This document shows, piece after piece, positions 5,676 through 51,996 of a stretch of 64,000 bases of DNA. How positions within the stretch are numbered: the stretch's first letter is position 1; every line of letters starts with the position of its first letter. The stretch comes from an uncultured Bacteroidota bacterium. GTDB lineage: Bacteria; Bacteroidota; Bacteroidia; 2-12-FULL-35-15. The position numbers were made by a program, and so were the translations under genes. The notes beneath the pieces are model-generated. The model was given only the letters and a program-made list of their open reading frames with translations, was not told the origin of the DNA and did no database searches. The stretch is from assembly GCA_903926385.1 (NCBI GenBank), contig CAIYIS010000059.1:62001-126000 (forward strand). Direction: 5' to 3'.

Positions 5676-5836
5676 GAGGAGGATATGAATATACACGGCA
5701 TACATGTAAAATGACACGGGACACGTGTAAAATGTCAAATGACTTTGATAAAATGACAAATGACACGTGTAAGATGACACTTTACACGTGTAAAGTGACA
5801 CGAGACACGTGTAAAATGACAATTCATATCCTCCTC
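5676..5836. repeat. 21-bp tandem array (A, 6 units, 5693-5818) enclosed by a 15-bp perfect inverted repeat
   Basis: Units such as acacgggacacgtgtaaaatg and acacgagacacgtgtaaaatg at strict 21-bp spacing; GAGGAGGATATGAAT (5676-5690) and ATTCATATCCTCCTC (5822-5836) are exact reverse complements. Confidence 0.93.
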
Positions 5837-5911
5837 AAACGAAAAGACAGAAGTCAAACACTGCTTGAGATTTCAAAAATAAGATAAAGTGAATGGGAAA
5901 TTTAATGTTAA

Positions 5912-6454
5912 CTAAATAGTATTTTTAATTTTCTGCTCAATGGCAGACGTGGAAAAGCCTTCTAGAAAAGCTATAGTAACAACTTCCCCGCCTTTTTTTC
6001 TCACCACATCCGAACCTACGATGTATTTTTTACTTGCAGGATTGGTTTCTGTGGCATCATAATCGGCTCCTTTAACAAGTACATCCGGTTTTATAAATTG
6101 AATTAATTCGAGTGGTGTAGGTTCGTTGAATAAAATAACAGCACTAACAAAATGAAGAGAAGCAATAATCATAGCTCTTGTTACTTCGTCCTGCAGGGGC
6201 CTGGTTTGGCCTTTTCCAAGACCTCTTACCGAAGCATCACTATTTATTCCAACAATAAGATGTTTACCCAAATCGCTTGCTTTAGCGAGATAATCCACAT
6301 GTCCGCGATGAAGAATATCAAAACACCCATTCGTGAAAACAACTTTTTCTCCTTTATAGTTCCATACATTTAATCGAAATTCTAAATCAGTTGTTGTTAC
6401 AACTTTCGATTGGATAACATCCAAAGCCGGTAAAGGTGGGATTTTATAGAACAT
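5912..6454 (-). CDS. rfaE2: D-glycero-beta-D-manno-heptose 1-phosphate adenylyltransferase-like nucleotidyltransferase
   Basis: [42 protein letters not shown]; start moved to [12 protein letters not shown] at 6454. Confidence 0.85.
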
Positions 6455-7466
6455 TTGTTTTCTGAGTTTCTTTGTTGAAGATAGGCAACAACACCAATGA
6501 TAAAGACCCAACTGCCAATATCATTATAAATTGTGATACCCAAACGGCCCAGGCAAATGCATTAGCAGGTGCTTCGGTTATACTGTACACTGTCATTAAT
6601 ATTTGAATAACGATTAACTGATAAGCTCCCGTTCCTCCCGGTACAGCAATGATTCCGATGCTTCCAAAAACTACAATTACCATAGCAACCACAAAGGAAA
6701 GATGAGCAGTTTCGGGAAAAGCAAAGAAACAAACATACACTTGCAAAATGTACAATAGCCAAATTACGCAGGTTTGAAGAATAAAGAAAAATGGCTTCTT
6801 TACATTTTTAATGCTGAGTAATCCCTGCCATATTCCTTTGGCAAAACCCAGTATTTTTCCGGAAATAAGTTGTTTTATTTTTACTCTAAAATAAAAGAAA
6901 ACACCGAGCAGAGCTACAAAAACAACAAGCATTGCAATAAGCAAAAATTGATTCTGCATTAAGGCATGCCATTTTACCGCCACATTTTTAAATATTAAAT
7001 CATTGGCAATGCCAGATATTTTATCGAGTTCAATAGCAAAAGTAAGAAAGAAGATAAGTATTAAACAAACCATATCAAATGCTCTTTCGGCAATGACAGA
7101 GCCAAACCCTTCGGTAAAAGGCACCTTTTCGTATTTAGTAAGTAGGCCGCAACGCGTAACTTCTCCAATACGATGTATGGCAAAGTTGGCCAGATAACCC
7201 ACCATTACGGCAAAAAATGTGTTATACGTTTTAGGTTTGTGATGAAGTGGTTCCAGAAGCATTTTCCACCTCACTGCTCTGAAATAATGGCTAAGACCAC
7301 TGATAACAACCGAAAGAATCAGCCAGAAATAGTTAGCCTGTTTGATGGACTCAACTATATCACTGATTTGTTTCTCCGTTTTATCGCGCAAAGCCAGCCA
7401 AACCAATAAAATCCCCAATCCGAGAAAGAACAGGATTTTGATAACATTGATGGCTTTCTTCTTCAA
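6444..7466 (-). CDS. Lysylphosphatidylglycerol synthase TM-region / YbhN-like flippase family membrane protein
   Basis: 340-aa polytopic protein with [16 protein letters not shown] and [16 protein letters not shown] motifs; overlaps rfaE2 by 11 nt. Confidence 0.8.
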
Positions 7467-7469
7467 AAC

Positions 7470-7820
7470 TTATCTAAGTTTGTTGGTACGAGAATCGGGA
7501 AAAACAACGGTAGGATTGTGTTTCTTGGCTTCTTCAAAATCCATGGAAGCATAAGAAACAATGATAATCTGATGTCCAACACTTATTTTTAAAGACGCAG
7601 GGCCATTCAGACAAATAACTCCCGAACCTCTTTCTCCTTTGATAACGTAGGTAGAAAGGCGTTCGCCATTATTATAATTAAACACATCCACCTTTTCATT
7701 TTCAATCAGATTGGCAGCATCCATCAAATCTTCGTCAATGGTGACACTTCCAATATAATCCAGGTCGGCCTGAGTAACCGTTACTCTGTGTATTTTTGAT
7801 TTTAAAACTTCTATATGCAT
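7470..7820 (-). CDS. panD: Aspartate 1-decarboxylase
   Basis: [36 protein letters not shown] with the GS processing site and [18 protein letters not shown]; start moved to 7820. Confidence 0.95.
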
Positions 7821-7903
7821 ATTGGTTACAAAACTAAACAAATTATTTTGATTGTAGAATTTGAAAAGTTCAGAAGAGTATATTTTTGACAGAAAAAGTT
7901 AGG

Positions 7904-8803
7904 TTAAACCTTTTCTTCCTTTTTCTTCTCCATATAGTTTTCGTACAAAGTATGCACTATACCATCCGACAATCCTATCTGAGGAATAATTACTTTTTCT
8001 ATTTCTGCTTTCTTCAATACAGTAAGCAGTATTTTTGATGCAGGTATAATTACATCGGCACGGTCGGGGTTTAAACCCAGTGTTTGTACACGTTCTTCGT
8101 ATGTATACGAATCGAGCAATTCATAAAGGTTTTTCAATTTAGCGGTAGCAATGGGTTTGTTTAACTTTCTTCCCGACAATTTGAATAATTTATTAATATT
8201 CCCTCCCGAACCTATTGCCATTAATGGTTTATAACCTTTGGTCATTTCAGAAATCCAGTTCTTAAAATACCCCCAGTATTCTTTGTCAATCTGATTATGG
8301 AGCATTCGGATGGTACCAATATTGAATGACTGAGAAACAACAGCCTTTCCTTTGGAGAACAAAGTTATTTCGGTGCTTCCACCACCAATATCAATATACA
8401 GGTAATTATTTCCTTTGTCCAGATGCTCCTCTATGTGGTTGGAATAAATAATATCGGCCTCTGTTTTACCGTCAATAATTTCAATCTTAATACCGGCCTC
8501 TTTTCTAACTCTGTCCACAATGTCGTATCTATTCTCGGCATCGCGCATGGCAGAAGTTGCGCAGGCTCGGTAATCAAGCGCATCGTAAACACTAATCAAA
8601 TGTTTAAATGCCTTCATGGCAGTAACAAGTTTTTCTTCTTTTTCGGGAGAGATAACGCCATTAAGAAAAGAATCCTCTCCCAAACGGATGGGTACGCGAA
8701 TTAATTCTGCTTTCTTAAAGATGGGTTTTCCGTTTTCGTTATATACATTACAAAACAGCAGTCTCACTGCGTTCGAACCTATATCAATGGCTGCAAATTT
8801 CAA
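7904..8803 (-). CDS. ppx: Ppx/GppA family exopolyphosphatase
   Basis: AAIDIGSNAVRLLF, ATSAMRDAENR, YIDIGGGSTEITLF. Confidence 0.9.
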   Translation of the reverse strand: MKFAAIDIGSNAVRLLFCNVYNENGKPIFKKAELIRVPIRLGEDSFLNGVISPEKEEKLVTAMKAFKHLISVYDALDYRACATSAMRDAENRYDIVDRVRKEAGIKIEIIDGKTEADIIYSNHIEEHLDKGNNYLYIDIGGGSTEITLFSKGKAVVSQSFNIGTIRMLHNQIDKEYWGYFKNWISEMTKGYKPLMAIGSGGNINKLFKLSGRKLNKPIATAKLKNLYELLDSYTYEERVQTLGLNPDRADVIIPASKILLTVLKKAEIEKVIIPQIGLSDGIVHTLYENYMEKKKEEKV

Positions 8804-8809
8804 TAGGGT

Positions 8810-10870
8810 CTATTTCTTTTTAAGTTTAAAATATTTGTAAATTTCTTCTTGTGCTCTTATTTCTGTTTTATCTGCGCTTCTTCGGTATTCGTTATTCTGC
8901 ATACTTCCTAGCACCCGTGCTTTGGTATTGTCGGCCCAAAGAATATCCATAATTTGTTTTACCTGAAGTTGAATATTTTTATCATACACCGGCACTGCTA
9001 CTTCCGAACGGTGATCTAAGTTACGTGCCATCCAGTCGGCTGAGGACAAATAAATTTTTTCATTACCTCCATTATGGAAAATAAATACTCGGCTATGTTC
9101 TAAAAATTTATCGACTATACTTATTGCTTCAATATTATCACTAAGCCCTCTTACGCCTGCCACTAGCGAACAAATGCCTCTCACAAGCAATTTAATTTTC
9201 ACTCCTTCGGTACTGGCTTCGTATAGCTTCTTAATAATATTGGGGTCGACCAGATTGTTTAACTTTAAAGTAATGGCTGCCGGAATATTTTTTCTGGCAT
9301 TCGCAATCTCTTTATTGATAAGTGCAGTAACATTTTTACGCATGGTGAACGGAGATACCAGCAGATGTTTGTATGTTCCTGTTTTAAGGTTATCAGAATA
9401 AAACATAAATAATTTCTCTGCCTCCTCTGTTATTCTAGGGTCTGTGGTTAACAAACTATGGTCAGTGTATACTCTAGCGGTATCACCATTAAAGTTGCCT
9501 GTTCCCAAATGAGCGTAATGATGTAATTTACCATTCTCTTTTCTGCTTATTAAAAACAGCTTGGTATGCACCTTTAATCCGGGAACACCATATATAACAT
9601 TTGCACCTTCCTCTTGCAGCTTATTGGCCCAGTAGATATTCGACTCTTCATCAAAACGAGCCTGCAACTCAATAACAGCAACTACCGATTTTCCGTTCTT
9701 TAATGCATTAATCAGCGCCTTCACCACATTGGAATTGTTGGCAACCCGGTATAAAGTTATTTTTATACTCACTACTTTGGGGTCGATGGAAGCTTCGCGC
9801 AAAATATCTATGATATGGTCGAAAGACTGGTAAGGATAAGTAAGCAGCACATCCTTCTTTTTTATAACTTTCAACAAATTGGTTTGATTAACCAAATCAG
9901 GGTGTTTGAGGGGAGGTGTTTTTTTATAACTCAACTCTGGCGAACCTACATTCGGGAACTTTATAAAATCCTTGAAATTGTGATATCTGCCACCAGGTAT
10001 GGGATTCTCTTCTTTTCCAAGTTTTATTTTTTTCATAATAAACTCAAGAATGTCGGGAGATATCTGGCTATCGTAAACCAGCCTCACAGGTTGCCCTTTT
10101 TTTCGGTCTTTTAACCCCTTTGTTATTTTTTCTATAAAAGATTTGGACACATCATTGTCAATATCCATTTCGGCATCTCTGGTGAGTTTGATATTGAATG
10201 CTTCGATGTAATCGTGTTCAAAATTAGGGAATATATCTTCGAGACAAAATCTAATTACATCGTCCAGGAGAATAATAAAGTTCTTTTCTTTGTCTTTGGG
10301 AAGAACAACAAAGCGGGACAGAACATCTGTTGGTACTTCTATTAAAGCATATTTATTTTTTTTATCTTTTTGCTTTCGTCCAAGTTTTATAATCAGATAA
10401 CCTGATTTATCCTTAAGGTAAGGAAATTTAGAAGTTGAATCTAACATTATCGGGAAGAGAGAAGGCAAAACCTTTTCCCGGAAAAATGTCTTTATAAATA
10501 CCCGTTGCGAAGGAGTTACTTGCTTTTCATTGATGATAAAAATATTGTTTTTTACCAACTCCAGACTAAGTGTTTGATAAATCGATTCAAATTTTATTTG
10601 CTGCTGAATAACGGTTTTCTGAATGGCATTCAGAATTGCAACCGGATTTTCGCCCATTAACTCAATCGCTTTTTTCTGATGTTTAATTACTCGAGTAAGC
10701 GTGGCCACTCTTACACGGAAAAACTCATCTCTATTATTAGAAAAAATGCCGAGAAATTTAATTCTCTCTATTAAAGGTACGGTTGAGTCCTGAGCTTCCT
10801 GCAATACCCTTTCGTTAAAGGATAACCAGCTTAATTCCCTATTGATTAAAACTTTCTTTTCCTTTTTCAT
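8810..10870 (-). CDS. ppk1: Polyphosphate kinase 1
   Basis: NRELSWLSFNERVLQEA, IKITLYRVANNSNVVKAL, VHTKLFLI, HLGTGNFNGDTA. Confidence 0.95.
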   Translation of the reverse strand: MKKEKKVLINRELSWLSFNERVLQEAQDSTVPLIERIKFLGIFSNNRDEFFRVRVATLTRVIKHQKKAIELMGENPVAILNAIQKTVIQQQIKFESIYQTLSLELVKNNIFIINEKQVTPSQRVFIKTFFREKVLPSLFPIMLDSTSKFPYLKDKSGYLIIKLGRKQKDKKNKYALIEVPTDVLSRFVVLPKDKEKNFIILLDDVIRFCLEDIFPNFEHDYIEAFNIKLTRDAEMDIDNDVSKSFIEKITKGLKDRKKGQPVRLVYDSQISPDILEFIMKKIKLGKEENPIPGGRYHNFKDFIKFPNVGSPELSYKKTPPLKHPDLVNQTNLLKVIKKKDVLLTYPYQSFDHIIDILREASIDPKVVSIKITLYRVANNSNVVKALINALKNGKSVVAVIELQARFDEESNIYWANKLQEEGANVIYGVPGLKVHTKLFLISRKENGKLHHYAHLGTGNFNGDTARVYTDHSLLTTDPRITEEAEKLFMFYSDNLKTGTYKHLLVSPFTMRKNVTALINKEIANARKNIPAAITLKLNNLVDPNIIKKLYEASTEGVKIKLLVRGICSLVAGVRGLSDNIEAISIVDKFLEHSRVFIFHNGGNEKIYLSSADWMARNLDHRSEVAVPVYDKNIQLQVKQIMDILWADNTKARVLGSMQNNEYRRSADKTEIRAQEEIYKYFKLKKK

Positions 10871-10921
10871 AACTTAAAATACCTAACAGAACAAAAGTAA
10901 CGAAAAATACAATTACCTTTT

Positions 10922-11191
10922 CTACTTTGCTCCTTTCGTTTTTACTTTTTTCGGATTTGGTTTTACCGTATTCTTGGTATCCACTTTCTTGACATTTTCC
11001 TTTTTAGCAACAAGTTTCTTTTTCTGCACTGGTTTATATGCCTTAAAGAACTTTTTCGCCAATATTTTTGAGGCTCCATATACAATGTCGTTCACTTCCT
11101 TTGCTGCTTCTGGGTTAATTGCTATCAAAGCGTTTTCAATGATAGTCACCAATGAATGTTCCAGCTCTTTTCTTTGTTTCTTCTTGTCCAT
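10922..11191 (-). CDS. Small basic protein with Lys-rich C-terminal tail
   Basis: 89 aa; tail KPVQKKKLVAKKENVKKVDTKNTVKPNPKKVKTKGAK; same strand and 51 bp upstream of ppk1. Confidence 0.7.
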   Translation of the reverse strand: MDKKKQRKELEHSLVTIIENALIAINPEAAKEVNDIVYGASKILAKKFFKAYKPVQKKKLVAKKENVKKVDTKNTVKPNPKKVKTKGAK

Positions 11192-11300
11192 GATAATTAA
11201 TTTTTAGTTTATAAAATTATAGAGAATATTTACGCGAAATCAGACTGACAAAAATGATAACACTAAATTAACAACCAAACAAACCCACAAAAGGTATAGT

Positions 11301-11795
11301 TTAAATATTGTTTTTAGGAAAATCAAATAAAACTAATTTACCCGGAACGTCTATAAACTCTTCCCAGGTAGCACATTTATTAGTAATACCAACAATTCCG
11401 CAAGTAGGAATTGCCTCCATGGTTGTTCGCAATAATGCATTTGCACAGTCAGTAATTGTGGGATTATGGGCAAATAAAAACAACGTATTTACTTTACTAT
11501 TTGTTTCAGCAATTATGGAAAGGTATTTATCGTAATCAGAATGGTAAAGCGAAGGTTCAATTCGAATCTTCGCACTATTATAATCAGTATTTCGTGCAAA
11601 AATAAGAGCGGTGGTAAGTGCTCTTACTGCACAACTTGAAATAATTTCTTCAGGTTTGATACTAGCGGATTTAAAAACCAGACTCATTTTGTGAGCATCG
11701 GTATATCCTCGAGTGTTGAGTGGACGATCTATATCTGCAAGGGCGATATTAGCCCAATCTGATTTAGCATGACGAATAAGGTAAAGTGTTTTCAT
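11301..11795 (-). CDS. SixA-like histidine phosphatase
   Basis: LYLIRHAKSDW, RPLNTRGYTDAHKM, LFAHNPTITD. Confidence 0.9.
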   Translation of the reverse strand: MKTLYLIRHAKSDWANIALADIDRPLNTRGYTDAHKMSLVFKSASIKPEEIISSCAVRALTTALIFARNTDYNSAKIRIEPSLYHSDYDKYLSIIAETNSKVNTLFLFAHNPTITDCANALLRTTMEAIPTCGIVGITNKCATWEEFIDVPGKLVLFDFPKNNI

Positions 11796-11867
11796 ATTGA
11801 AAATTCAACAGTAAAACCTATATATCTAAGCCATCTATCAAACTTCTGACAGAGGCAATAATTCTTT

Positions 11868-13493
<1,626 letters not shown>

Positions 13494-13655
13494 TTATTTT
13501 GCTTAATCCTTAACCAGAGGAAGTTTTATCGGTTGGGCAAAAGTAAGAAAAAAATCCAACAGGAATATTGCGAAATGAATAAAAGTTTTACTCAAATAAC
13601 AAATCCAAATTAAATAATTCAGTAAGTTGTAAGTTATCTAACGAAAAGAAATGCT

Positions 13656-15998
13656 CTAAAAAGTCATAATAACGCTCAGTGTTGGCAGAATAGGCAATTG
13701 GTCTACTCGTTTGTATTGAATACGGTCAAAATAAAACACATTCTCACGACTATAAACATTGGTGGCACCTGCCGCTATTTCAAGTTTAGTATTTGCAAAC
13801 AGCAGAAAAGTACGTTTTATGTTCACATCTAAACGGTGGTACCATGGTAATTCCTTTACCTGGCTTTCATCAAAGAAATAATTCAAATCACCATTCGTGG
13901 AGGTATAGTTAGTATTTATCCCCTGCTGAAAGTTCAAGTCCTCATAAAAACCTCCTGTTGGTTTAAATGGAAACCCAGATCCCACATTCCATCGAGCATC
14001 AATTTCCCAATTTTTCTTTTTGCCCAAAGTGTATGACACAACCAAGTTCGCATTATGTCTTCTATCGTAATGAGTACGGTAATCTTGTATACCATCCCAG
14101 TGATTAACATACCCCAATGAATACACCACCCACACATACAATCTCTTGTAATCATACTTTAACACAACGTCCAAACCTTGAGCTCGCCCTGTCTCAATTA
14201 TGTAGTCTTTTTTCATAATGTCAGGTTTATTTGCATTTTCAAGCAATGTTTCATCATATATTTTGTATGGGTTTATGTTAGACAATTGAGTAAAATCTTT
14301 ACGATATACTTCAACATTTAAACCCACGTGTTTTGCCAAATCCATTTCGAAACCGGCAACATAATGATTTGCTTTTTGTAATTTCGACTTCACATTCACT
14401 ACATCTCCGTTCTCATTTACATAGGAGGTTGGCAAGTTATCCGGACCTGACAGGAAGCCATAAAACAAGTTCACCACTTCTCTATCAGTATTAGTTGCAA
14501 TCAAGTTTTGAGAATACATTCCTCCTGCAAATTTGAAGCGAATTTTATGTGTAACATTCCACTTAAAACTTAATCTCGGCTCAGGAGAAAACTCGGCAAG
14601 AGATGCATAATACTGAATGCGCATACTTGGTTCAATCAAAAGCTTTTTGTGTTTAGAAATCCATTTATATTTCAAATACCCGCCAATTTCGGTTGTGTAA
14701 TCATTTTGAAAAATATGTCGACCGATCGAATTGTAGAAATCAAAATAAGTACTGAATCCATCTACATCTATACCATAATTCAGCTCATTTTGACGCATGA
14801 AGTATGAGAAACCGATTCCCATATTAAAACCTTTTATCGTACTCGATTCTTCAGGCTGAGCTTCCGGTTTCATTTTTATTGCATATTGTGAATATGCAAA
14901 ATTACCATTAACCAAAACAGGTGAATTTTGAGGCACCAAAAGAAAATTCCCGCCTCCTCCGTATGAAACCCAATTCATATCCTGTAATGATTGGTAACTA
15001 ACCTTATCATTAAAATTAAATCCGAATAAATTCAACTTACTACCATTATTACTGTTAAACGACACCTTTCCGTAGTAATCATTGAAACTGAAAGGTAAAC
15101 CATTCGGATCAACATAAGAGTATAGCAGCTTAGATGTGGTAGGTAAAAAAGAAGTCTTGGCAGAAAGAATAAAAGAAGAGGTTCCATTACTTCCTTCTTT
15201 ATATCTTTTCAAAGGCCCTTCAGCTAGAACTTTTGCTCCGAAAGGAGAAAAAGCTACTTTACCAGCAACGCGTCTTTTGTTTCCATCACGTGTAGTGATG
15301 TCCATGATAGAAGAAATTCGTCCACCATATTCTGCACCGAAACCTCCACTGTATACATCTGCGTTGCGAATAATATCAGCATCAAAAACAGAGAATAATC
15401 CAATGGAGTGAAATGGGTTGTAAACAATCATTCCATCAAGCAAGACTTTATTTTGAATTGGCGAACCTCCACGAATATAAAGTTGTCCCCCTTGATCGCC
15501 CGTAAAAATAACTCCAGGCAAAACTTGGAGATATTGAGCTAAATCTGGCTCCCCTCCAACTGTTGGCAATTTTTTGATAGTTACCGGATCAATTTTATTC
15601 ACCGAAACTTGAGTTTCTGACTCTTTTGCTTGTTGTTCGGCAGTAATTTCTACCTCAATTAGTTTCACATTGCCTTTTACTAAATATAACTTTTGGTTAA
15701 GTATATCCCCTGCTTTAATGGTAATGGGTTGCTGGAGAGTATCGTACCCCAAAACCGATACAATCATAATTGTATAATTTCCGGGTGGTATTCGACTTAT
15801 GGTAAAGAAACCATTTACATCCGTTGCTATACCCATGGAGGTACCTTTGAGCACAACATTAGTAAACAAAACGGGTTCGCCTGTTTCTTTTACATAAACA
15901 AAACCTCTTACTGTTCCTGTTCCTGATTGAGAGAATGTAACCATTGAACCTAAAGTGAACAATGTGATAAAAATATATTTAATAAAACGTACAGACAT
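13656..15998 (-). CDS. TonB-dependent receptor with N-terminal carboxypeptidase-like regulatory domain
   Basis: GFVYVKETGEPVLFTNVVLKGTSMGIATDVNGFF followed by plug LPTVGGEPDLAQYLQVLPGVIFTGDQGGQLYIRGGSPIQNKVLLDG. Confidence 0.92.
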   Translation of the reverse strand: MSVRFIKYIFITLFTLGSMVTFSQSGTGTVRGFVYVKETGEPVLFTNVVLKGTSMGIATDVNGFFTISRIPPGNYTIMIVSVLGYDTLQQPITIKAGDILNQKLYLVKGNVKLIEVEITAEQQAKESETQVSVNKIDPVTIKKLPTVGGEPDLAQYLQVLPGVIFTGDQGGQLYIRGGSPIQNKVLLDGMIVYNPFHSIGLFSVFDADIIRNADVYSGGFGAEYGGRISSIMDITTRDGNKRRVAGKVAFSPFGAKVLAEGPLKRYKEGSNGTSSFILSAKTSFLPTTSKLLYSYVDPNGLPFSFNDYYGKVSFNSNNGSKLNLFGFNFNDKVSYQSLQDMNWVSYGGGGNFLLVPQNSPVLVNGNFAYSQYAIKMKPEAQPEESSTIKGFNMGIGFSYFMRQNELNYGIDVDGFSTYFDFYNSIGRHIFQNDYTTEIGGYLKYKWISKHKKLLIEPSMRIQYYASLAEFSPEPRLSFKWNVTHKIRFKFAGGMYSQNLIATNTDREVVNLFYGFLSGPDNLPTSYVNENGDVVNVKSKLQKANHYVAGFEMDLAKHVGLNVEVYRKDFTQLSNINPYKIYDETLLENANKPDIMKKDYIIETGRAQGLDVVLKYDYKRLYVWVVYSLGYVNHWDGIQDYRTHYDRRHNANLVVSYTLGKKKNWEIDARWNVGSGFPFKPTGGFYEDLNFQQGINTNYTSTNGDLNYFFDESQVKELPWYHRLDVNIKRTFLLFANTKLEIAAGATNVYSRENVFYFDRIQYKRVDQLPILPTLSVIMTF

Positions 15999-16167
15999 AG
16001 CGCTGATGATATTTTTTTAGATTCTTAAAAAACGTGCAAAACTAAGAAAATATTGATAACAGTGAAGGAATGTTTTTTAAAATGAACTAATTCGTCTTCT
16101 AACCGTATTTTTAACTTAAAATAAAAACATACAGTAAGAATTGATTGACTTAAGTAGAAACTAAGAA

Positions 16168-16581: not shown

Positions 16582-16899
16582 ATATTTTATTTTAGGGATG
16601 TAAAGATAAAGCATTTTTAAAACAAACCTCTTTCTTTTTTATTGTTTCCATGTTGCTTGTTTTTCCACAAACTTAAAAGCTGAATGTTTGCCTCTCTGAA
16701 TTATTGTTTCGGGTTTGAATAGAGAGTTGATGAATTCTTAATTGCGCCCTTCCTTACTTTTAAATTTCAAAACAGTTATTCAAGATGTCAAACATATTAT
16801 GATTATTCAGAAAGCAAAAGTCTGAAAATAGTCTCCAAAAGTTTCTTAAAATTAATTAAAAACAAAGAAATTTATTATTAAACACAGTCTCTTCCCCGC

Positions 16900-17004
16900 G
16901 AAACTAAGTTAATTTCTAACCTAATTATGTTTTTCATTTACTTAGTTAAGTAAACGATTTCCTTAACTAAGTTTTTGATCGACTTAGTTAGCCGATTATT
17001 TAAC
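16900..17004. repeat. Degenerate 21-bp tandem array (E, 5 units) in a divergent intergenic region
   Basis: Units gaaactaagttaatttctaac / ctaattatgtttttcatttac / ttagttaagtaaacgatttcc / ttaactaagtttttgatcgac / ttagttagccgattatttaac align at 21-bp spacing. Confidence 0.7.
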
Positions 17005-17166
17005 TCATTATCTACACATAAGCTTGACTAACTACAAATTAACAATAAGCTTCAATTGAATTTCTATTAAAACCCAATTAACTTCATCAAACTAAATTGC
17101 ACTTCAAATCATAGAAATAAAATGTATTCCTTTTTTTATTTTTCAATAAAATTAAATAAGTATTTG

Positions 17167-17174: not shown

Positions 17175-17201
17175 CCTTTATAAAAAGAAATAAATAATTG
17201 T

Positions 17202-37910: not shown

Positions 37911-38019
37911 TGATTTGGGGTGTTTTTTGGAATATTTAATCGAAGGGGAGAATGGTTTGGGAGAAGAATTGGGAGGAATGGGATTTTGATTTTGAGGTTT
38001 GGGGGAATTTCAAAACAAC

Positions 38020-38061
38020 GGTCGAAAATAAGTTGACAATGATCGAAAATAAGTTGGAAAC
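38020..38061. repeat. 21-bp tandem pair (D)
   Basis: ggtcgaaaataagttgacaat / gatcgaaaataagttggaaac. Confidence 0.8.
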
Positions 38062-38067
38062 ATTGAA

Positions 38068-38130
38068 GAAGGGGCCTCACCCCTTCATCCCCTCTCCGAA
38101 GGAGAGGGGAAAAAACGTGACGATTGGGGT
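38068..38130. repeat. REP-like hairpin repeat, copy 1
   Basis: GAAGGGGCCTCACCCCTTCATCCCCTCTCCGAAGGAGAGGGG...GTGACGATTGGGG; 9-bp stem CCCCTCTCC-GAA-GGAGAGGGG. Confidence 0.85.
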
Positions 38131-38132
38131 AT

Positions 38133-38188
38133 GACCTCAGCCCTGCCCCTCTCCGCAAGAGAGGGGGTGATGCGTGACGGTTGGGGGG
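38133..38188. repeat. REP-like hairpin repeat, copy 2
   Basis: GACCTCAGCCCTGCCCCTCTCCGCAAGAGAGGGGGTGATGCGTGACGGTTGGGG, related to copy 1. Confidence 0.8.
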
Positions 38189-38360: not shown

Positions 38361-38447
38361 AAGAAGCTAATGGATGAAGAGAAAAAAAGATACCGCGCGA
38401 GGGCGGGAGAGGGGATTACGAAGGGAGATAAGGATGGTGCCCTAATT

Positions 38448-38550
38448 AGATTTGAGATATTAGATATGAGTATTGAGATGTGAGATTTGAGATTGATTAT
38501 TGCCTATTGCTGAATTGTCCAATTGATTAATTGAACAATTGGCTGATTGC
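38448..38550. repeat. Degenerate low-complexity tracts (AGATTTGAGATATTAGATATGAG and ATTGCCTATTGCTGAATTGTCC)
   Basis: Reiterated GAGATTTGAGAT words, then AATTG/GCCTATTG words partly inverted relative to 37806-37861. Confidence 0.7.
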
Positions 38551-41094: not shown

Positions 41095-41102
41095 CCGAAA
41101 TA

Positions 41103-41936: not shown

Positions 41937-41969
41937 TCTGTTTTGATATTTTTAAATCGATTTTATAAA

Positions 41970-43004: not shown

Positions 43005-43012
43005 GCTGATTC

Positions 43013-43930: not shown

Positions 43931-43933
43931 TTA

Positions 43934-44824
43934 TTATTCTGTTTTTATCCAATTCCAGTCCTTTACTTTTATTCCGGCAGGATAATATTTCTTTACTTTA
44001 AAACCTAAAAAGTACTCGGGTGCGAATACTATTTTATTTGCCTTATCATTCAACCAAGCTGCCCACCAAGAAAACGAACTGTTGGCAATAATTACAATTT
44101 CTGCTTCTTTCAGAATCTGAAAATCGGTAATCTCATCATTGTTTTCGAAATAATAATTATCCGCGTTACCAAATTCCTGCTTCACAAATTCTATGTCGTC
44201 TGAAACAAATATTATATTATATTGTTCTATATCCTTTATTTGACCAAGACAATTTCTATAATAACTCATCGGCAAAGTGATGTCGCTTCCTCCTATTCGG
44301 TTATCGCCATGTTGAAGATAATCTTTTCGTCTGATGTGAAGCGCAATGTTTTTCTTAGTCTTCATGTATTGTTTCGTTTCAAGAAACACAGACTGATATT
44401 CAAGTTTAATGGCAAATAGTTTTTTTATATCATCAGCATATTTTTCATAATATTCTTCCGATTGAAAATAGCCTTCGTAATAAGTATTGTCTTTTAAATT
44501 TGTTAGCAAATAGTTTTTACTGTCGAGAGAATTGTCCCATACACAAACATTTTTGGCGACCCCCCAATCCATAAACCACCACTTAAATTCTTTGTAATCG
44601 CTACGTTTGCTTAGCAGTTTACTTTTGCGAAACAGATTAATAAAAATATATTTCAGCATTACACTTCTATTTTTCTTTTCAAAATCATGTTCCAATTCAA
44701 AATACTTTAACGATTTTGGGTTATACGCAAAGTAAGGAGTGTTTAACTTCTTACTTGCAACGTATCCAAAGGCCATTTGAAACATTTGGTTACACATCCC
44801 TCCCTGACAAAGAACTCCTATCAT
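43934..44824 (-). CDS. Alpha-1,2-fucosyltransferase-like (GT11) glycosyltransferase
   Basis: GGMCNQMFQMAFGYVASKKL, NIALHIRRKDY, IIANSSFSWWAAWL. Confidence 0.9.
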   Translation of the reverse strand: MIGVLCQGGMCNQMFQMAFGYVASKKLNTPYFAYNPKSLKYFELEHDFEKKNRSVMLKYIFINLFRKSKLLSKRSDYKEFKWWFMDWGVAKNVCVWDNSLDSKNYLLTNLKDNTYYEGYFQSEEYYEKYADDIKKLFAIKLEYQSVFLETKQYMKTKKNIALHIRRKDYLQHGDNRIGGSDITLPMSYYRNCLGQIKDIEQYNIIFVSDDIEFVKQEFGNADNYYFENNDEITDFQILKEAEIVIIANSSFSWWAAWLNDKANKIVFAPEYFLGFKVKKYYPAGIKVKDWNWIKTE

Positions 44825-44827
44825 CGT

Positions 44828-46417
44828 TTATTTTATATCGCTGTAATGTTGAATGAACTTGTTACTAAATATTTCATCCGAATGAGAAAGCACGAAGCTC
44901 ATGTACTTGTCGTTATATGTATCTCCCTTGAACGAGGCTAATGTATTAAAGATATTAGAATCTCCATGTAGGGTTTTATCTAAAAATGCCTGATAATAGA
45001 AGCTAAATATCTTCTCTTTGTTATGGTCATTTACCGGCATCTGTTCTCCTTTAATTATCTTAAAAAAAGTTTCGATGTCGCTGCAAGTATGCGTGAAACC
45101 GAAATTAGTGTATAAGTTATCATACAAAGCAACTGTTGGTATTTCAAAATAGGCCATCTCCAAACATACCGTTCCTCTTGCGGTAACTATTAAATCCGGA
45201 CGCAAGTCAATTACATTTAAGTTTGAAATATTTTCATCTAATATATGAAAGTTGTGATTATTGAGGCTTTTCACTAGGTCAATAGTTATTTCCTTACAAC
45301 CATCTACTCCGTTGGGATGAGTTTTGATAAATACATTTGTGTCCTTGATATCGTTTATTCCAATCAATGTTTGCCTGATAAACTGAAACAAATCGGGGAA
45401 CTGCAGTTTACGATTAACATGAGGTGAGTCGTAAAAATCATGAACATAAATCACCACATTTCTTTTTTGTGAAGCAAACAATCTTTTCAAATTTTCATCA
45501 AAAGGTTTGTCGGAAAATGCTGAAGTGCGCATATAGCTTGTGGCAGCATCTATCTTCCCCTCGAAACGAGATGTGAGTTTTTCTTTTGCTAGATTTAGTT
45601 GTGCTTCCGTTAATTTTTTCTCCGGGCTGAACAATGTGTGATTGATTTGATGATATGGAAATTCTTTACTGAGTTTTTGCACCACATATGAGTAACTACC
45701 GATACTGTAGACATCAATATTTTTATCCAAACAAAGTCGGGCAGGAATACCATGATGCAAATAGGATGTATATGTATTTACCAAAGCTTTTATATTTTTT
45801 CTGCTAAGCATTGCTCTGAAATTGTAAAATATATTTATTGCCACTTCAATTGTGAACTTTACATCTTCATTAATGTTTGTGATGGTTGGTTGATGGTAAT
45901 GCCTGAGATAATGATCATAAATAAGGTCGCCAACAAGTACACCTTCAAAGGTAATAGTAAGCACATCTTCGGGTTTGTTTAATGCACCGACAACCTCATT
46001 TAACTTTTGCAGAACAAAGGACTGGTCGTGATATTTGTCTTCACATCTAAAAACAATTCTGTCGCCAAAATGAAGGTATATTTTACTTAAACCGGACAAA
46101 AACCATTTATCGCAAATGGACTTATGTAAATTACTCCACCCCTTCCATGCCGACCAATGCGCATCGTATATCACTATCCCCAATTTGTGCTTCTCAGCAA
46201 GAACTTTGGCAGCACCTGCAATACGTATTGTAAACTCATAATCTTTTACCATTTGTACCAGCACCAACCCTTTCTCCTTACTCGGTGGCACAGATGATTT
46301 AAAGAAAAATATCTTTTGAGCAAACCTTCCACCCACTGCACTCAGTTCAATCTGTTTGTAGTATCGAAAAAAATCGTATGGAAAAAGAAAAATAACTCTT
46401 AAAATCCTTAATAGCAT
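44828..46417 (-). CDS. Putative surface-polysaccharide biosynthesis protein of unclear family
   Basis: 529 aa in the polysaccharide cluster; VFIKTHPNGVDG and RPDLIVTARGTVCLEMAYFEIPTVAL resemble capsule-transferase folds. Confidence 0.55.
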   Translation of the reverse strand: MLLRILRVIFLFPYDFFRYYKQIELSAVGGRFAQKIFFFKSSVPPSKEKGLVLVQMVKDYEFTIRIAGAAKVLAEKHKLGIVIYDAHWSAWKGWSNLHKSICDKWFLSGLSKIYLHFGDRIVFRCEDKYHDQSFVLQKLNEVVGALNKPEDVLTITFEGVLVGDLIYDHYLRHYHQPTITNINEDVKFTIEVAINIFYNFRAMLSRKNIKALVNTYTSYLHHGIPARLCLDKNIDVYSIGSYSYVVQKLSKEFPYHQINHTLFSPEKKLTEAQLNLAKEKLTSRFEGKIDAATSYMRTSAFSDKPFDENLKRLFASQKRNVVIYVHDFYDSPHVNRKLQFPDLFQFIRQTLIGINDIKDTNVFIKTHPNGVDGCKEITIDLVKSLNNHNFHILDENISNLNVIDLRPDLIVTARGTVCLEMAYFEIPTVALYDNLYTNFGFTHTCSDIETFFKIIKGEQMPVNDHNKEKIFSFYYQAFLDKTLHGDSNIFNTLASFKGDTYNDKYMSFVLSHSDEIFSNKFIQHYSDIK

Positions 46418-46565
46418 ATTTGCATTTGTGTTATTTCACAAAAGTAACTAATATCTCTTTTCTTTTACATCTGACCATTGTTGGAAGTTAACAACCTTTG
46501 GTTAGTAAAACGGCATTGTTGAGTAATTAAAAACAAATGAAAATGAAATGAATAACAGGGAAAGC

Positions 46566-47876
46566 TTAGCGCTGATATTTGGTGATGTCGAACTCGTAAG
46601 ATTTGCCATCATTAAAATCCCAACGATATGGAATGATTGGAGAGATGGTATCGTGGGCAACACTGTCGGCAAGTGTGCCGTTTAAACCTATTTCGGATAA
46701 AACAGAAGTGATATTAAATACAGCTACATCTTTTGAATCGGTGAGGGCATAAAGTCCTTCTTTTTCGCGGATACCAATCAGTACGGTATACTGCCCCGGC
46801 AACAAAGGCATATTTAAGAATGTACACTTAATTGTGTTTTTACCTTTTTCGAATTTAGAAGTGCGGTAACCATCTATTAAACCGGAAGCATTGGTAACTG
46901 GCCCTTTGGCAGATTTAATAGCAATAAACATATAAGGACTTTCGTATTCCTGCAATGAATTTAATTCTACTTCCACTTCTAGATTATCTCCGAACTGAAA
47001 GTTTTGCTGCACCATTCCACGCTGATCGCGGAGAACTATTTTTTCTACAATTACCTTTTCGTCACTGCTGTTTTTTCCAATAATAAATTCACCTGAATTA
47101 GAAACATTACCACTGAAATAATTTCCGGTGATAATTTCGGTATCGCCCATGGATTGAATCTTTCCGGCATTTAGTAAAATGGCTTTATTACAAAGACTGT
47201 TGATGGCACCCATATTATGACTTACAAAAATAACGGTGCGGCCGTCACCAGCTACATCTTTCATTTTGCCAAGACACTTGTTTTGAAAAGCAGCATCGCC
47301 TACGGCCAACACTTCGTCTACTATTAATATTTCGGGTTCGAGATGAGCGGCTACTGCAAATGCAAGGCGAACATACATCCCCGATGAATAGCGTTTAACC
47401 GGAGTGTCGAGAAACTTTTCTACTTCTGCAAAATCAACTATTTCGTCAAATTTACTTTCAATCTCGCGTTTGGTCATTCCTAAAATGGAACCGTTGAGAA
47501 AAATATTTTCTCGTCCGCTCAGTTCCGGATGAAATCCGGTACCCACTTCGAGGAGACTGGCTACACGACCATCTATTGTTATTCTTCCTTTGGTGGGGGT
47601 AACAATACGACTTAATATTTTTAGTAAGGTGGATTTACCTGCACCGTTTCGGCCTATAATACCTACTCTTTCGCCTGCATTAATTTCGAAGGAAACATCA
47701 TTTAATGCCCAAAACTCCTCTGTGGACTGATGAGAGCTATTAGATGAACTTTTAGATACTACTGACTTTACCTTGTTTGTTATTACATCCCGCAAGGCGG
47801 TATATTTTTCAGCATTCTGATGTTTCAGAATGTAACGTTTACTTAAATGTTCTACTGTTATTGCAGGCTGGCTCAT
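46566..47876 (-). CDS. wzt: Polysaccharide ABC exporter ATPase with C-terminal Wzt-type domain
   Basis: GIIGRNGAGKSTLLKILSRIVTPTKGRITIDGRVASLLEVGTGFHPELSGRENIFLNG plus about 180-aa C-terminal domain. Confidence 0.92.
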   Translation of the reverse strand: MSQPAITVEHLSKRYILKHQNAEKYTALRDVITNKVKSVVSKSSSNSSHQSTEEFWALNDVSFEINAGERVGIIGRNGAGKSTLLKILSRIVTPTKGRITIDGRVASLLEVGTGFHPELSGRENIFLNGSILGMTKREIESKFDEIVDFAEVEKFLDTPVKRYSSGMYVRLAFAVAAHLEPEILIVDEVLAVGDAAFQNKCLGKMKDVAGDGRTVIFVSHNMGAINSLCNKAILLNAGKIQSMGDTEIITGNYFSGNVSNSGEFIIGKNSSDEKVIVEKIVLRDQRGMVQQNFQFGDNLEVEVELNSLQEYESPYMFIAIKSAKGPVTNASGLIDGYRTSKFEKGKNTIKCTFLNMPLLPGQYTVLIGIREKEGLYALTDSKDVAVFNITSVLSEIGLNGTLADSVAHDTISPIIPYRWDFNDGKSYEFDITKYQR

Positions 47877-47883
47877 TACTCTA

Positions 47884-48726
47884 TTAAATTACATCGGCAA
47901 AGGTTTTTTCCATTCTTCGGAAATACCAAACCCCCACAAATAAAAACAATACACTTATGCCTATTGACATTAAAAATCCGGGTAAATACAAAGTAGTACT
48001 ACCTCCGAGGATACACCATCTGAATCCGTCTATTACCCCAACCATAGGGTTTAGGGAATAAATAAACTTAAGGTAAGCTGGCAGTGTGGGGTGATTATAA
48101 ATCATATTGCTGCTGAAAGCAACTGGCGATACGTATAAACCGAACTGAACAATGAAAGGAATAAGATAACGAAAATCGCGGTACTTAACATTGAGAGCCG
48201 AGATAAAAAGCCCTGTGCCCATAGCTGTGACAATGGCCAGCAAGAGAAAAAGAGGCAACATTAGTATTTTCCAATCGGGCATAAAGCGAGTAAAAATCAT
48301 TATCACTACAAGGATGGCGAAGGAAATGAAAAAGTCGATAAGGCAAACGATAACTGTACTGGCCGGAACAATTAATCGAGGGAAATATACTTTGGTAAGC
48401 AAATTAGAATTAGACACAAGAGAATTACTGGCTTCGCTGAAAGATGAAGAGAAGAACTGCCAAGGCAAGGTGGCTGTACATACCAATAACAAACGAGGCA
48501 CACCGGTGGGTACTTCGGAATGGAACAACCAACCAAGAAAACCCATTACAAAAATGGTGAGTAATGGTTTGGCCACACTCCACAGCACACCGATTACGGT
48601 TTGTTTGTAACGAACCAAGATATCGCGCCAAGCTAAAAAATAAAAAAGCCCACGGAAATTCCAAAGGTCGCGCCAGTAGTTACTGTCCTCGGTGTCGGGT
48701 TCAATTATTATTCTGTGTTTATTCAA
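47884..48726 (-). CDS. wzm: Polysaccharide ABC exporter permease
   Basis: YFLAWRDILVRYKQTVIGVLWSVAKPLLTIFVMGFLGWLF and SLNPMVGVIDGFRW. Confidence 0.92.
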   Translation of the reverse strand: MNKHRIIIEPDTEDSNYWRDLWNFRGLFYFLAWRDILVRYKQTVIGVLWSVAKPLLTIFVMGFLGWLFHSEVPTGVPRLLLVCTATLPWQFFSSSFSEASNSLVSNSNLLTKVYFPRLIVPASTVIVCLIDFFISFAILVVIMIFTRFMPDWKILMLPLFLLLAIVTAMGTGLFISALNVKYRDFRYLIPFIVQFGLYVSPVAFSSNMIYNHPTLPAYLKFIYSLNPMVGVIDGFRWCILGGSTTLYLPGFLMSIGISVLFLFVGVWYFRRMEKTFADVI

Positions 48727-48790
48727 AAGCTTTACTAATTAGTTGGCAAAAGTAGTTATTATCTTTTATAATCGAGCGTTGAATATTGTT

Positions 48791-50248
48791 CTACTTATCG
48801 ATGAGATTAATGATGTCGTCAAACACGGCTTCCTCGCTGGGGCGCTTGGCGTTCATATCTACTATGGTTCCTTTTTTATCGATAAGCATATAACGCGGGA
48901 TGGAATTGATTTGAAAGTATTTTACTATTTCACTGCTCCAGTCGCCCGGAACCAGGCCATTTTTAAAATCGCCTAAACCATTTTGCTCGATGGCTCGTTT
49001 CCATATCTCTTCTGTTTTATCAATAGAGATATAAAGGAAGACTACATTTTTCAATTGTTTTGGTGTAAACTTTTTGTGGAGTTCTTTGGAGAAAGGAAAC
49101 ATGCTGCGACAAGGGCCACACCAGCTTGCCCAAAAATCGACATAAACTACTTTGCCTTTTAAATCTTCGAAGGTAAAGTACTTTCCGTCTGTTCCCATTA
49201 TTTTAACACCTTCCTGAGGGCCGGAGGTTGCAGAAGAAGAGGCGGTGCTTTTATCATCAGGCACTTTCATGCGCATGCGCTTATCGCATTTGGCTTTGAG
49301 GAGGCGAGTGTAGTCGCCATTTTTTTCGTTGTAACTGAGCAAACCGTAAATATGTCGGGCGGTGTAAGGAGAGACGTTATCTACATTTTCATTGAGGTAA
49401 TTTGCCATAAAATAAACATTGGCTTTGTTGTTCAACGTTTGATTGGTGAAGGCCATTTTCTTTTCCATAGAAATAGAATTGTCGTTAAACTTATTAAAGT
49501 TGTTTAGGCGAGAGGTATTGTAGACCACATAATAATATAAAAAGTTACGATAGGTTTCGCAGTTGAGCGCCTCATCGTTATTGGCAAGTGTGGGAGTTAC
49601 TTCCTCGAGAAGAAGTGCGGGCAGGGGAGTAACCGTAAGTATGGACTTACTTTCGTTAGCATTAATGATGGGATACGCCTGCAACTGGTAGTAATAATTA
49701 TATTTAATGAGGTTGGTAACATAAGTATTAAAGCCGGCAGAAAACTTATCTTTCTCTTTATAGTTTTTATAAAAATCCATTTGCAGCTTGCGTTGAGCAA
49801 ATAAATAGTTTTCGTACTTATCAATGCCGGTGCTTAACATTCGTTGTTTGACGGCATCTTTATCGAAATCGTTTTTAAAGGTTTTGTAAAACTGCTTTAG
49901 AAACTCGTTTGGCACAATACCGGAACCCTGAATGGTTATGGCTTTGTAAAGCGAATCGTAAGCTATGTTTAGTTGCATATTATCGTTTGGTTCGAGCCAT
50001 AGATTAACCGATTGCTTATTGTACATAAGCTCTGCTATGCAGGGATTGGGCACGGTGAGGCTGAAACTGCAATTGTTGTCCTTGAGCAGAGCTATTACGG
50101 TAGGCTCATACTCGGAGATGTAATATTTATGGAGACGAATGATACAGGTGTCTTGGCTTGCCATAGAAAAATGACAGGATATGCTGGCATTTTGTGCTTG
50201 TGCCAAACTCACTGATAGTAGAGAAAAGATTAAAAATAGTTTTTTCAT
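48791..50248 (-). CDS. TlpA-like thioredoxin-fold protein with N-terminal DUF4369-like region
   Basis: GKVVYVDFWASWCGPCRSMFPFSKELHKKF; signal peptide. Confidence 0.88.
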   Translation of the reverse strand: MKKLFLIFSLLSVSLAQAQNASISCHFSMASQDTCIIRLHKYYISEYEPTVIALLKDNNCSFSLTVPNPCIAELMYNKQSVNLWLEPNDNMQLNIAYDSLYKAITIQGSGIVPNEFLKQFYKTFKNDFDKDAVKQRMLSTGIDKYENYLFAQRKLQMDFYKNYKEKDKFSAGFNTYVTNLIKYNYYYQLQAYPIINANESKSILTVTPLPALLLEEVTPTLANNDEALNCETYRNFLYYYVVYNTSRLNNFNKFNDNSISMEKKMAFTNQTLNNKANVYFMANYLNENVDNVSPYTARHIYGLLSYNEKNGDYTRLLKAKCDKRMRMKVPDDKSTASSSATSGPQEGVKIMGTDGKYFTFEDLKGKVVYVDFWASWCGPCRSMFPFSKELHKKFTPKQLKNVVFLYISIDKTEEIWKRAIEQNGLGDFKNGLVPGDWSSEIVKYFQINSIPRYMLIDKKGTIVDMNAKRPSEEAVFDDIINLIDK

Positions 50249-50296
50249 TGTCGGTATTGTTTTGTTGTGATTGTAAAGTTGGATAAGGCTATTGAT

Positions 50297-51055
50297 TTAT
50301 TGATTTTCGGGCAGAAAAAGTTTTGCACTGCCTTTAGCGATTGTCATTTTGTCGAGATGGCCCATAGTATGTTTGTCGGAAGTGAGGAGATGGATGTGCA
50401 AAAAGGTGTCGTGGTGAGTAAAGATGGTCTTATGTTCGGTAGAAAAGAAGCCTATTAACTCGGCATCGGTGTTGGCGATGGGAAAGCTGCGTTTTCCGAT
50501 AGCAGCATCTTCGGGCGAGGTAACCTTGGTGCCATCGGGAAGATTCATAACATGGACAGAGGCTTGCTCCATACGGGCTGTGATTTTGAAGAAAAACGGA
50601 CGAGGACTGTTTTTGGTGGTTTGGTTAAGAAAGTCTTCGAGTTGGGCAAGGTTTTGAACGGTGTCGGGCATGGGAGTGAGGAGCCAGCCGGAGATGTGAG
50701 CGTATCCGAAAAAGGGAGCTTTGAGTTGAAACGACTCGGTGACGGACATGGTGGAATCAGTGATGACTTGAGCTTTATAGGCATGACCATCTATAATGGT
50801 AATTTCTCCTTTTAGATTTTCGACAGGGCCAAAGCCACAAAGATTGGTTTTGTTGGCAATGGTATCGATGGAAATGCGAGCAAAAAGTTCGCCTTTGCGC
50901 ATTACATTTTTCATAGCGCCTACTATAATAGGTGTGGCTGAGATGGGTTGAGAGGCTGAGGCAGATGGGCCAGACGGGCCGGAACAGGCATACATCATTA
51001 GCAAGGCAGATACGGCCAGGGCTATTATTGAATGTTTGATCGGTGAGGTTATCAT
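50297..51055 (-). CDS. Hypothetical lipoprotein
   Basis: MITSPIKHSIIALAVSALLMMYACSGPSGPSAS lipobox; start moved to 51055. Confidence 0.65.
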   Translation of the reverse strand: MITSPIKHSIIALAVSALLMMYACSGPSGPSASASQPISATPIIVGAMKNVMRKGELFARISIDTIANKTNLCGFGPVENLKGEITIIDGHAYKAQVITDSTMSVTESFQLKAPFFGYAHISGWLLTPMPDTVQNLAQLEDFLNQTTKNSPRPFFFKITARMEQASVHVMNLPDGTKVTSPEDAAIGKRSFPIANTDAELIGFFSTEHKTIFTHHDTFLHIHLLTSDKHTMGHLDKMTIAKGSAKLFLPENQ

Positions 51056-51260
51056 TAGTATTACTGGTATTTGATTTAACAAACACTACCTTAATGGGGC
51101 AGTGAGTTAATTATTTTGCAAATATATAAAGGTTATTTTTACTGTACTATATATTATGGTATGAAATGGAGGGGTGAAAAGGGGGGTGAGGGGGGTAGGG
51201 GATTTCAAATTACCAATTTCAGATTTCGAATTGGGGGTAGGGGAATGGGAGAAAAAAGGG

Positions 51261-51485
51261 AAATCTGAGAGAAAAACAGCCGAACTAAGAAAAAAAACGT
51301 CAGTACAGAGAAAAAACACGCTATCAAATAACAATCGTACGCTATCAGAATGCAATCGTACGCTATCAAATGACAATCGGACGCTATCAAATAACAATCG
51401 TACGCTATCAAATGACAATCGTACGCTATCAAATGACAATCGGACGCTATCAGAATGCAATCGGACGCTATCAAATGACAATCGA
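51261..51485. repeat. 21-bp tandem array (B): 8 near-identical units (51318-51485) plus about 3 degenerate units upstream
   Basis: acgctatcaaatgacaatcgt/g units at strict 21-bp spacing; upstream +frame heptads KSERKTA/ELRKKTS/VQRKNTL keep the period. Confidence 0.95.
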
Positions 51486-51575
51486 AAGGGCCTCACCCCT
51501 CGCAGGCGCACAAGCTGGCTCAAACAGCCACTGGCTGTTTGCCCTCCTCTCCGAAGGAGAGGGGGAGGGACTTAA
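51486..51575. repeat. REP-like hairpin repeat, copy 3, interrupted by an extra hairpin segment
   Basis: aagggCCTCACCCCT ... CCTCTCCGAAGGAGAGGGGGA with an internal segment containing CAAACAGCC-ACT-GGCTGTTTG (51521-51541). Confidence 0.8.
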
Positions 51576-51724
51576 TGATTCGTAAATTTTGCCAGTAATT
51601 GTTCTCCTCTCTCCTTTGGAGAATAGCAAGTGGGGAGGCAATTAACTACCTGCAAACAACTTTAGGAATAGTAATTTATCTATTACTTTTTTGTAAAAGA
51701 AACACATTTTTTTACAAAAAAAGA

Positions 51725-51854
51725 AGGCAATGTTGACTCAAAACATCCCCTTTTCATGTCGAAACATCCTCGTTTCGTGTTGAAACGTCCTCGTTTCGTG
51801 TTGAAACATCCATGTTTCGTGTTGAAACGTCCATGTTTCGCGTCAACATTGCCT
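51725..51854. repeat. 21-bp tandem array (C, 5 units, 51741-51845) enclosed by a 13-bp perfect inverted repeat
   Basis: aaacatcctcgtttcgtgttg-type units; AGGCAATGTTGAC (51725-51737) and GTCAACATTGCCT (51842-51854); extends to 18/20 over 51718-51737 / 51842-51861. Confidence 0.93.
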
Positions 51855-51996
51855 GCTTATTTTCATAAATCCTGATGAAATGTGGTATCAATTCTTAATT
51901 CCTATTTCTCAACATACCGTTAGGATTCAAAACATAATCAGCAGAGTAAATAATGATTATGTTAAACGTTAAATATGCAGTACGATTATTTGATTA

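What the first reader, a model, noticed from the sequence alone, without database searches (positions are those of the whole stretch)
5676..51861. Five intergenic loci with tandem arrays of exactly 21-bp period but different unit sequences
Arrays A (5693-5818), E (16900-17004), D (38020-38061), B (51318-51485) and C (51741-51845) keep 21-bp spacing with largely unrelated units. All lie between genes, in convergent (A), co-directional (D) and divergent (E, B, C) contexts, so they are not simply terminators. Units of A and B share AAATGACA / TCAAATGAC, hinting at a part-constant, part-variable unit. 21 bp is two B-DNA turns, which would put a bound protein on one helical face, and is also 7 codons. 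A family whose period is conserved while its sequence diverges suggests a spacing-dependent function or a dedicated amplification process. I cannot name a described family that matches.
Basis: partly seen in the sequence, partly recalled or inferred. Interest (0 to 1): 0.8.

Follow-up and report, generated by a model that had tools for sequence, protein, structure and literature searches.

The report
Genome-wide intergenic repeats locked to 21 bases
A Bacteroidota bacterium (and some but not all of its sister species) carries an estimated two hundred intergenic DNA repeat arrays whose unit sequences are mostly unrelated but whose unit length is almost always exactly 21 or 42 bases, which points to an unknown process or protein that reads DNA length (two helix turns) rather than sequence.

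Summary
In 1.185 Mb of the window's own genome, lag-21 arrays number 65 against 1-8 for each period 16-20 and 22-24; 42 and 63 are equally common. About 63 high-confidence arrays were found, extrapolating to roughly 200 per genome (sample slightly biased upward). Units differ between arrays; 18 arrays have 42-bp units, 11 of them with little or no 21-bp similarity, and most of these look like a 21-mer plus its diverged inverse. Three sister species show the same quantum; two show none in 100 kb each. The arrays are not coding, terminators, A-tract curvature elements, heptamer repeats or a known Rfam family. Inverted-repeat content is two to three times a periodicity-preserving null. Single-base indels are four- to five-fold rarer than in other repeats of the genome. 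Positions are barely conserved between species (1 of 9). Best reading: independently born, often hairpin-prone minisatellites made and homogenised by a lineage-specific process locked to two B-DNA turns; a phase-dependent binding function is the main rival. The responsible factor is not identified. I found no published description in the papers searchable here.

The parts
5676..5690 (+). left arm of the inverted repeat that brackets array A (GAGGAGGATATGAAT)
   Evidence: (15/15 match to the right arm)
5693..5821 (.). array A, about 6 units of 21 bp (ACACGTGTAAAATG core), dyad-rich; one unit holds a 20-bp perfect palindrome (CACTTTACACGTGTAAAGTG)
   Evidence: dyad p=0.004; fold z -3.7/-4.9
5822..5836 (-). 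right arm of the inverted repeat of array A (ATTCATATCCTCCTC)
16900..17004 (.). array E, degenerate 21-bp array; AACTAAG and its inverse CTTAGTT recur
   Evidence: lag-21 identity 0.54; region-wide P about 0.01
38015..38057 (.). array D, two copies of a 21-bp unit (ACAACGATCGAAAATAAGTTG)
51318..51485 (.). array B, 8 units of ACGCTATCAAATGACAATCGT in constant register; related units on contigs C15 and C52
51726..51737 (+). left arm of the inverted repeat that brackets array C (GGCAATGTTGAC)
51741..51845 (.). array C, 5 units of AAACATCCTCGTTTCGTGTTG, hairpin-forming (TTTCGTGTTGAAA); second copy with its flanks elsewhere on the contig
   Evidence: (z -3.2/-3.9)
51842..51853 (-). right arm of the inverted repeat of array C (GTCAACATTGCC)

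Best explanation
These are intergenic minisatellites born many times independently in this lineage. SHOWN: the unit length is 21 bp or 42/63/84 bp whatever the sequence; units are enriched in inverted repeats (dyads or hairpins) on both strands alike; 42-bp units mostly look like a 21-mer plus a diverged inverted copy, often with two different dyads exactly 21.0 bp apart; single-base indels are depleted; positions are hardly conserved. INFERRED: arrays arise and are homogenised at the DNA level by a lineage-specific replication, repair or recombination activity that duplicates (preferentially dyad-containing) DNA in steps of exactly two B-DNA turns (21 bp = 2 x 10.5), so that only units in the same helical register are copied. 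Unit sequence is incidental. The enzyme is not identified.
For: Period spectrum: 65 arrays at 21 and 70 at 42 against 1-8 at neighbours; TRF score >=80: 19, 20, 11 and 6 at 21, 42, 63, 84 against mostly 0-2 elsewhere; smallest lag >=80%: 21 (50), 42 (16). Replication in G014 (21:17, 42:23), G043 (8, 4) and G042 (3, 3) with neighbours at most 2. 5-bp inverted repeats 2.5x null in 21-arrays and 2.2x in 42-arrays, about 3x in relatives, non-array flanks 1.7x; fold z below -1.5 in 52-54% of arrays on each strand. 42-only arrays strand-symmetric, Fisher 1e-5 and 2e-7; dyads exactly 21.0 bp apart in 6 of 20 against about 0.3 expected. In 21-arrays unit similarity decays with distance and edge units are the most diverged, as in unequal exchange or slippage. 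No compensatory change within arrays, so hairpins are not maintained by covariation. 1 of 9 orthologous flanks has an array in a relative. Gene context close to background.
Against: Ordinary slippage gives no length quantum, so an unnamed activity must be assumed. About 40% of arrays show no fold-back excess, and consensus dyad symmetry of pure 21-bp arrays is not significant overall (Fisher 0.65). Array G+C (0.40) does not follow the flanks (0.35, r = -0.11), which does not favour simple local seeding. Stems vary less than loops (0.195 vs 0.286, p = 0.002) and indels are depleted (10/1473 against 17/518), which can also mean selection. Some families are dispersed with shared ends, so not every array is an independent birth.
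Confidence: 0.45

Rival explanations
1. Phase-dependent binding platform: an architectural or dimeric DNA-binding protein with loose sequence preference binds sites that recur on one helical face; selection keeps the 21-bp register while the letters drift.
For: Exact 21n lengths with no 31/32, 20 or 22 classes; four- to five-fold indel depletion; stems less variable than loops; two different dyads exactly 21.0 bp apart in 42-bp arrays.
Against: No common unit across arrays; positions hardly conserved; no clear preference for a gene context; some sister species have none in 100 kb; no AA/TT phasing at 10-11 bp inside units.
Confidence: 0.3
2. Structured RNA: arrays are transcribed and their hairpins act as RNA (terminator, mRNA stabiliser, sRNA).
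For: Strong fold-back in about half of the arrays; stem-like inverted flanks around a few.
Against: No Rfam match in the window; both strands fold equally well on average; single G-T and A-C changes equally common (101 and 97) and no covariation; arrays common in divergent gaps.
Confidence: 0.08
3. Mobile miniature elements (MITE- or REP-like) with terminal inverted repeats whose inside has been amplified.
For: TCGGGGAGGA-capped family at 12 places; array C duplicated with flanks; GGTGGCACTTTG-capped pair with different insides.
Against: 84 of 126 array ends are unique; strong inverted flanks in only a few of 61 arrays; Y1 transposase counts do not follow array presence.
Confidence: 0.1
4. Coding repeats of 7 or 14 residues.
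For: 21 and 42 are multiples of three; many arrays contain an open frame; few indels.
Against: No mod-3 variability (1 of 51 arrays p<0.05, Fisher 0.77); 43 arrays with an open frame against 38.8 expected; no excess of 18-, 24-, 27- or 30-bp arrays comparable with 21; single-base indels mostly uncompensated.
Confidence: 0.02

Closest known systems
Tandem repeats of archaeal Borg elements (PMC9879509)
   Same: Many independently formed, fast-evolving tandem arrays with unrelated units, present in one genome type and nearly absent in its associates; generating machinery unknown.
   Different: Borg units have varied lengths (only 14-38% of intergenic ones divisible by three), are perfect, A-rich, and about half lie in ORFs; here the length is 21n, units are imperfect, arrays are intergenic and dyad-rich.
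Heptamer and TAACTGA direct repeats of bacteria including Bacteroidetes (PMC4679880, PMC6344855)
   Same: Abundant intergenic direct repeats with an unexplained fixed period.
   Different: Short 7-bp units; the 21-bp arrays have no 7-bp sub-period. True heptamer arrays coexist in this genome as a separate class.
REP / BIME / REPIN palindromes (PMC3733652, PMC3116915, abstracts)
   Same: Intergenic, palindromic, 20-40 bp modules.
   Different: REPs are dispersed sequence families tied to a RAYT transposase (own knowledge); here units differ between arrays and Y1 transposases do not track them.
Plasmid iterons (own knowledge)
   Same: Direct repeats of about 20-22 bp that put a protein on one face of the helix.
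   Different: One sequence per replicon, bound by its Rep protein; here an estimated two hundred chromosomal arrays with different sequences.

Membership tests
Bacterial minisatellite / VNTR | head-to-tail repeat arrays of units above 10 bp | tested here: met
Bacterial minisatellite / VNTR | copy number varies between strains | not testable with these tools
   one genome per species is held; no strain pairs
Borg-type tandem repeats | perfect units without SNPs | tested here: not met
   1473 substitutions against consensus in 11.5 kb of arrays
Borg-type tandem repeats | arrays recently formed and absent from relatives | tested here: inconclusive
   1 of 9 orthologous flanks has an array in a relative; two sister species have none in 100 kb
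REP/REPIN elements | one dispersed palindromic sequence family with a RAYT gene | tested here: not met
CRISPR array | constant repeats separated by unique spacers | tested here: not met
   no spacers; contiguous units
Heptamer repeats | 7-bp period | tested here: not met
   identity at lags 7 and 14 at background
Intrinsic terminators | downstream of genes, enriched in convergent gaps | tested here: not met
   divergent 22, convergent 8, co-directional 24; background 62/28/104
Coding repeats | codon-position bias and open frame beyond chance | tested here: not met

The most novel reading that the evidence does not exclude
A dedicated, patchily distributed DNA-amplification activity (or chromatin-like protein array) that recognises DNA only by helical register, copying or holding intergenic DNA in quanta of exactly two B-DNA turns irrespective of sequence.
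Probability: 0.35. Interest if true: 0.9.

Novelty: new variant of a known kind. Interest (0 to 1): 0.72.

Why it matters
Tandem-repeat unit lengths in bacterial intergenic DNA are normally not fixed across unrelated arrays. A genome with dozens to hundreds of unrelated arrays all quantised to 21n bp makes the question of what sets repeat unit length directly testable. It offers natural replicates with and without the trait inside one genus, and points either to an unknown amplification activity or to an unknown phase-reading nucleoid protein.

Tried and rejected
Terminators: context matches background. RNA families: no Rfam hit in the window. Conserved RNA structure: no covariation, no strand bias. 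Coding: rejected. Curved DNA by in-unit A-tract phasing: no excess at lags 10-11. Heptamer origin: none. Universal terminal inverted repeats: only a minority of arrays. Shared neighbouring gene: the largest cluster of flanking proteins carries what looks like a secretion C-terminal sorting domain (YPNP motif, read by eye, not scanned against Pfam), common in Bacteroidota and so not taken as specific. Lack of the hairpin nuclease SbcCD: only 2 of 31 genus members (G005, G015) have SbcD over cut-off, and species without arrays also lack it, so at most permissive. RAYT/Y1 transposases: no correlation. Literature searches found no description of a 21-bp quantum.

Full report
WHAT WAS CHECKED. The window is bases 62001-126000 of contig 59 of a 4.27-Mb, 85-contig genome. 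Its genes (a GldN-like gliding protein, EVE domain, ABC transporter and others) and the named relatives found for one of its proteins place it in Bacteroidota; the genus could not be named because the own genus did not appear in the named results. All five arrays are real. Lag 21 is the best lag of 15-30 and no dinucleotide shuffle of 1000 reaches it; E is degenerate and D has two copies. The stated gene contexts are right.

THE GENOME-WIDE TEST. I took 61 stretches, 1.187 Mb in all (about 28% of the genome; one 2.35-kb stretch is masked and was dropped from later analyses), and counted arrays by lag autocorrelation (42 bp, at least 67% identity). Period 21 gives 65, the periods 16-20 and 22-24 give 1-8, period 42 gives 70 and 63 gives 53; period 7 gives 23 and is a separate class. 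Tandem Repeats Finder agrees: at score 80 or more there are 19 arrays at 21, 20 at 42, 11 at 63, 6 at 84, mostly 0-2 at other periods and 4 at 41. Taking the smallest lag that reaches 80% identity, 50 arrays are fundamentally 21 and 16 are fundamentally 42, while 20, 41, 44 and 48 have 2, 6, 1 and 1. About 63 high-confidence arrays lie in the sample, about 53 per Mb and so roughly 200 per genome. A few stretches were chosen because they held matches, so this is slightly high.

LENGTH, NOT SEQUENCE. Units of different arrays are mostly unrelated: 84 of 126 array ends cluster with nothing. Of the 18 arrays classed as 42-bp in the own genome, 11 fall in a '42-only' class, and in nine of these the identity at lag 21 is 0.06-0.25, i.e. 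chance or less. The 42-bp class therefore does not come from weakly similar 21-mers in direct order. These 42-mers are strand-symmetric beyond permuted controls (Fisher p 1e-5 in the own genome, 2e-7 in relatives), as if made of a 21-mer and a diverged inverted copy. Where two dyads can be placed in a 42-bp unit they are exactly 21.0 bp apart in 6 of 20 cases against about 0.3 expected; two of the six belong to one family.

DYADS AND HAIRPINS. Against a null that permutes the positions of the unit but keeps the array periodic, 5-bp inverted repeats are 2.5-fold (21) and 2.2-fold (42) in excess, and about three-fold in relatives, while non-array flanks reach 1.7-fold over mononucleotide shuffles. 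Fold energies have mean z -1.7 and -1.8 on the two strands; 52-54% of arrays are below -1.5 and almost none above +1.5. The property is strand-symmetric. Within arrays there is no compensatory change (14 observed, 14.2 expected) and G-T and A-C single changes are equally common, so RNA structure is not what is maintained. Stems vary less than loops. Pure 21-bp arrays as a class are not significantly dyad-symmetric in consensus, so a hairpin is frequent but not obligatory.

REGISTER. In 52 arrays (11.5 kb) there are 1473 substitutions from consensus but only ten single-base indels (plus one slip of a whole 21 bp). Dispersed non-array repeats of the same genome show 17 gaps per 518 mismatches. 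The 21-bp register is thus kept four- to five-fold better than in this comparison set; the two counts used different aligners, so the factor is approximate.

DISTRIBUTION. Three sister species show the same quantum: G014 (388 kb: 17 at 21, 23 at 42, 12 at 63, 22 at 84, other periods at most 2 except 14 with 6), G043 and G042; one array was seen in G004. G008 and G009 show none in 100 kb each; smaller samples of other species are inconclusive. These stretches were chosen by matches to other repeats of the window, not at random. Among 80 named Bacteroidota loci (1.4 Mb) period 21 has 9 hits against 0-4 for other periods; MAG Cfx3-09 (L174) has a clear 21-bp array and UBA5371 (L167) two weaker ones. 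In only 1 of 9 cases is there an array in a relative beside the ortholog of a gene that flanks an array here, so arrays seem to come and go.

WHAT IT IS NOT. The arrays are not in coding frame: no mod-3 signal, open frames close to expectation, no comparable excess of other multiples of three. They are not terminators: 22 divergent, 8 convergent, 24 co-directional against 62, 28, 104 for gaps in general. There is no 7-bp sub-period and no AA/TT phasing inside units, and no Rfam family in the window. SbcD is missing over cut-off from 29 of 31 genus members, with or without arrays, so its absence may permit hairpins but does not explain the trait; Y1 transposases do not track it.

HOW IT MOST LIKELY WORKS. 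21 bp is the smallest whole number of bases that is a whole number of B-DNA turns (2 x 10.5); 31 or 32 would drift, and they are absent. I infer that intergenic DNA, preferentially dyad-bearing, is duplicated and homogenised in this lineage by an activity that works only in phase, so that off-phase units are neither made nor spread. The alternative, selection for a protein platform with loose sequence preference on one face of the helix, explains the indel deficit and stem conservation equally well but predicts some positional conservation that is not seen. A minority of arrays belong to dispersed families with inverted caps (TCGGGGAGGA at 12 places; array C and its copy), showing that finished arrays also get copied around.

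COMPARISON. The nearest described phenomenon is the tandem repeats of Borg elements (PMC9879509): independent, genome-specific, but with free unit length, perfect copies and A-rich. The SPADE survey of 7006 prokaryote genomes (PMC6344855) stresses heptamers; a search of its main text for '21 bp' gave nothing. My literature searches were limited to open-licence papers, so an earlier description in a subscription journal cannot be excluded.

Noticed in passing
window 38446-38494; L042:3019-3092; L052:12353-12445; L075:16964-17036: A separate class of true heptamer arrays (GATTTGA / TTGATTA / GTTAGTT types) coexists with the 21-bp arrays.
   Followed up: partly
window 38075-38170, 51490-51580, 51995-52150: A dispersed repeat containing CCTCTCCGAAGGAGAGG with variable surroundings occurs many times in the genome and in sister species, often next to arrays.
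   Followed up: partly
L016:564, L017:272 and 720, L019:858, L022:300, L023:619, L045:618, L038:5836: Many arrays lie within about 1 kb of contig ends, so arrays probably break the assembly and copy numbers may be underestimated.
   Followed up: no
L235-L246 (TCGGGGAGGATGTGAA family): Inside arrays TCTTGGA and its reverse complement TCCAAGA replace each other in place, and one unit reads as a near-perfect palindrome (GGTAAGGAGTCTTCCTTACC), as expected of template-switch (quasi-palindrome) mutation.
   Followed up: partly
genus of G000 (31 genomes): Canonical SbcD passes the family cut-off only in G005 and G015; the rest of the genus seems to lack this hairpin nuclease.
   Followed up: partly
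L053 after 17366, L042 after 1780, L019 after 12584, L039 before 5898: Four arrays lie upstream of members of one small family of proteins of unknown function.
   Followed up: no
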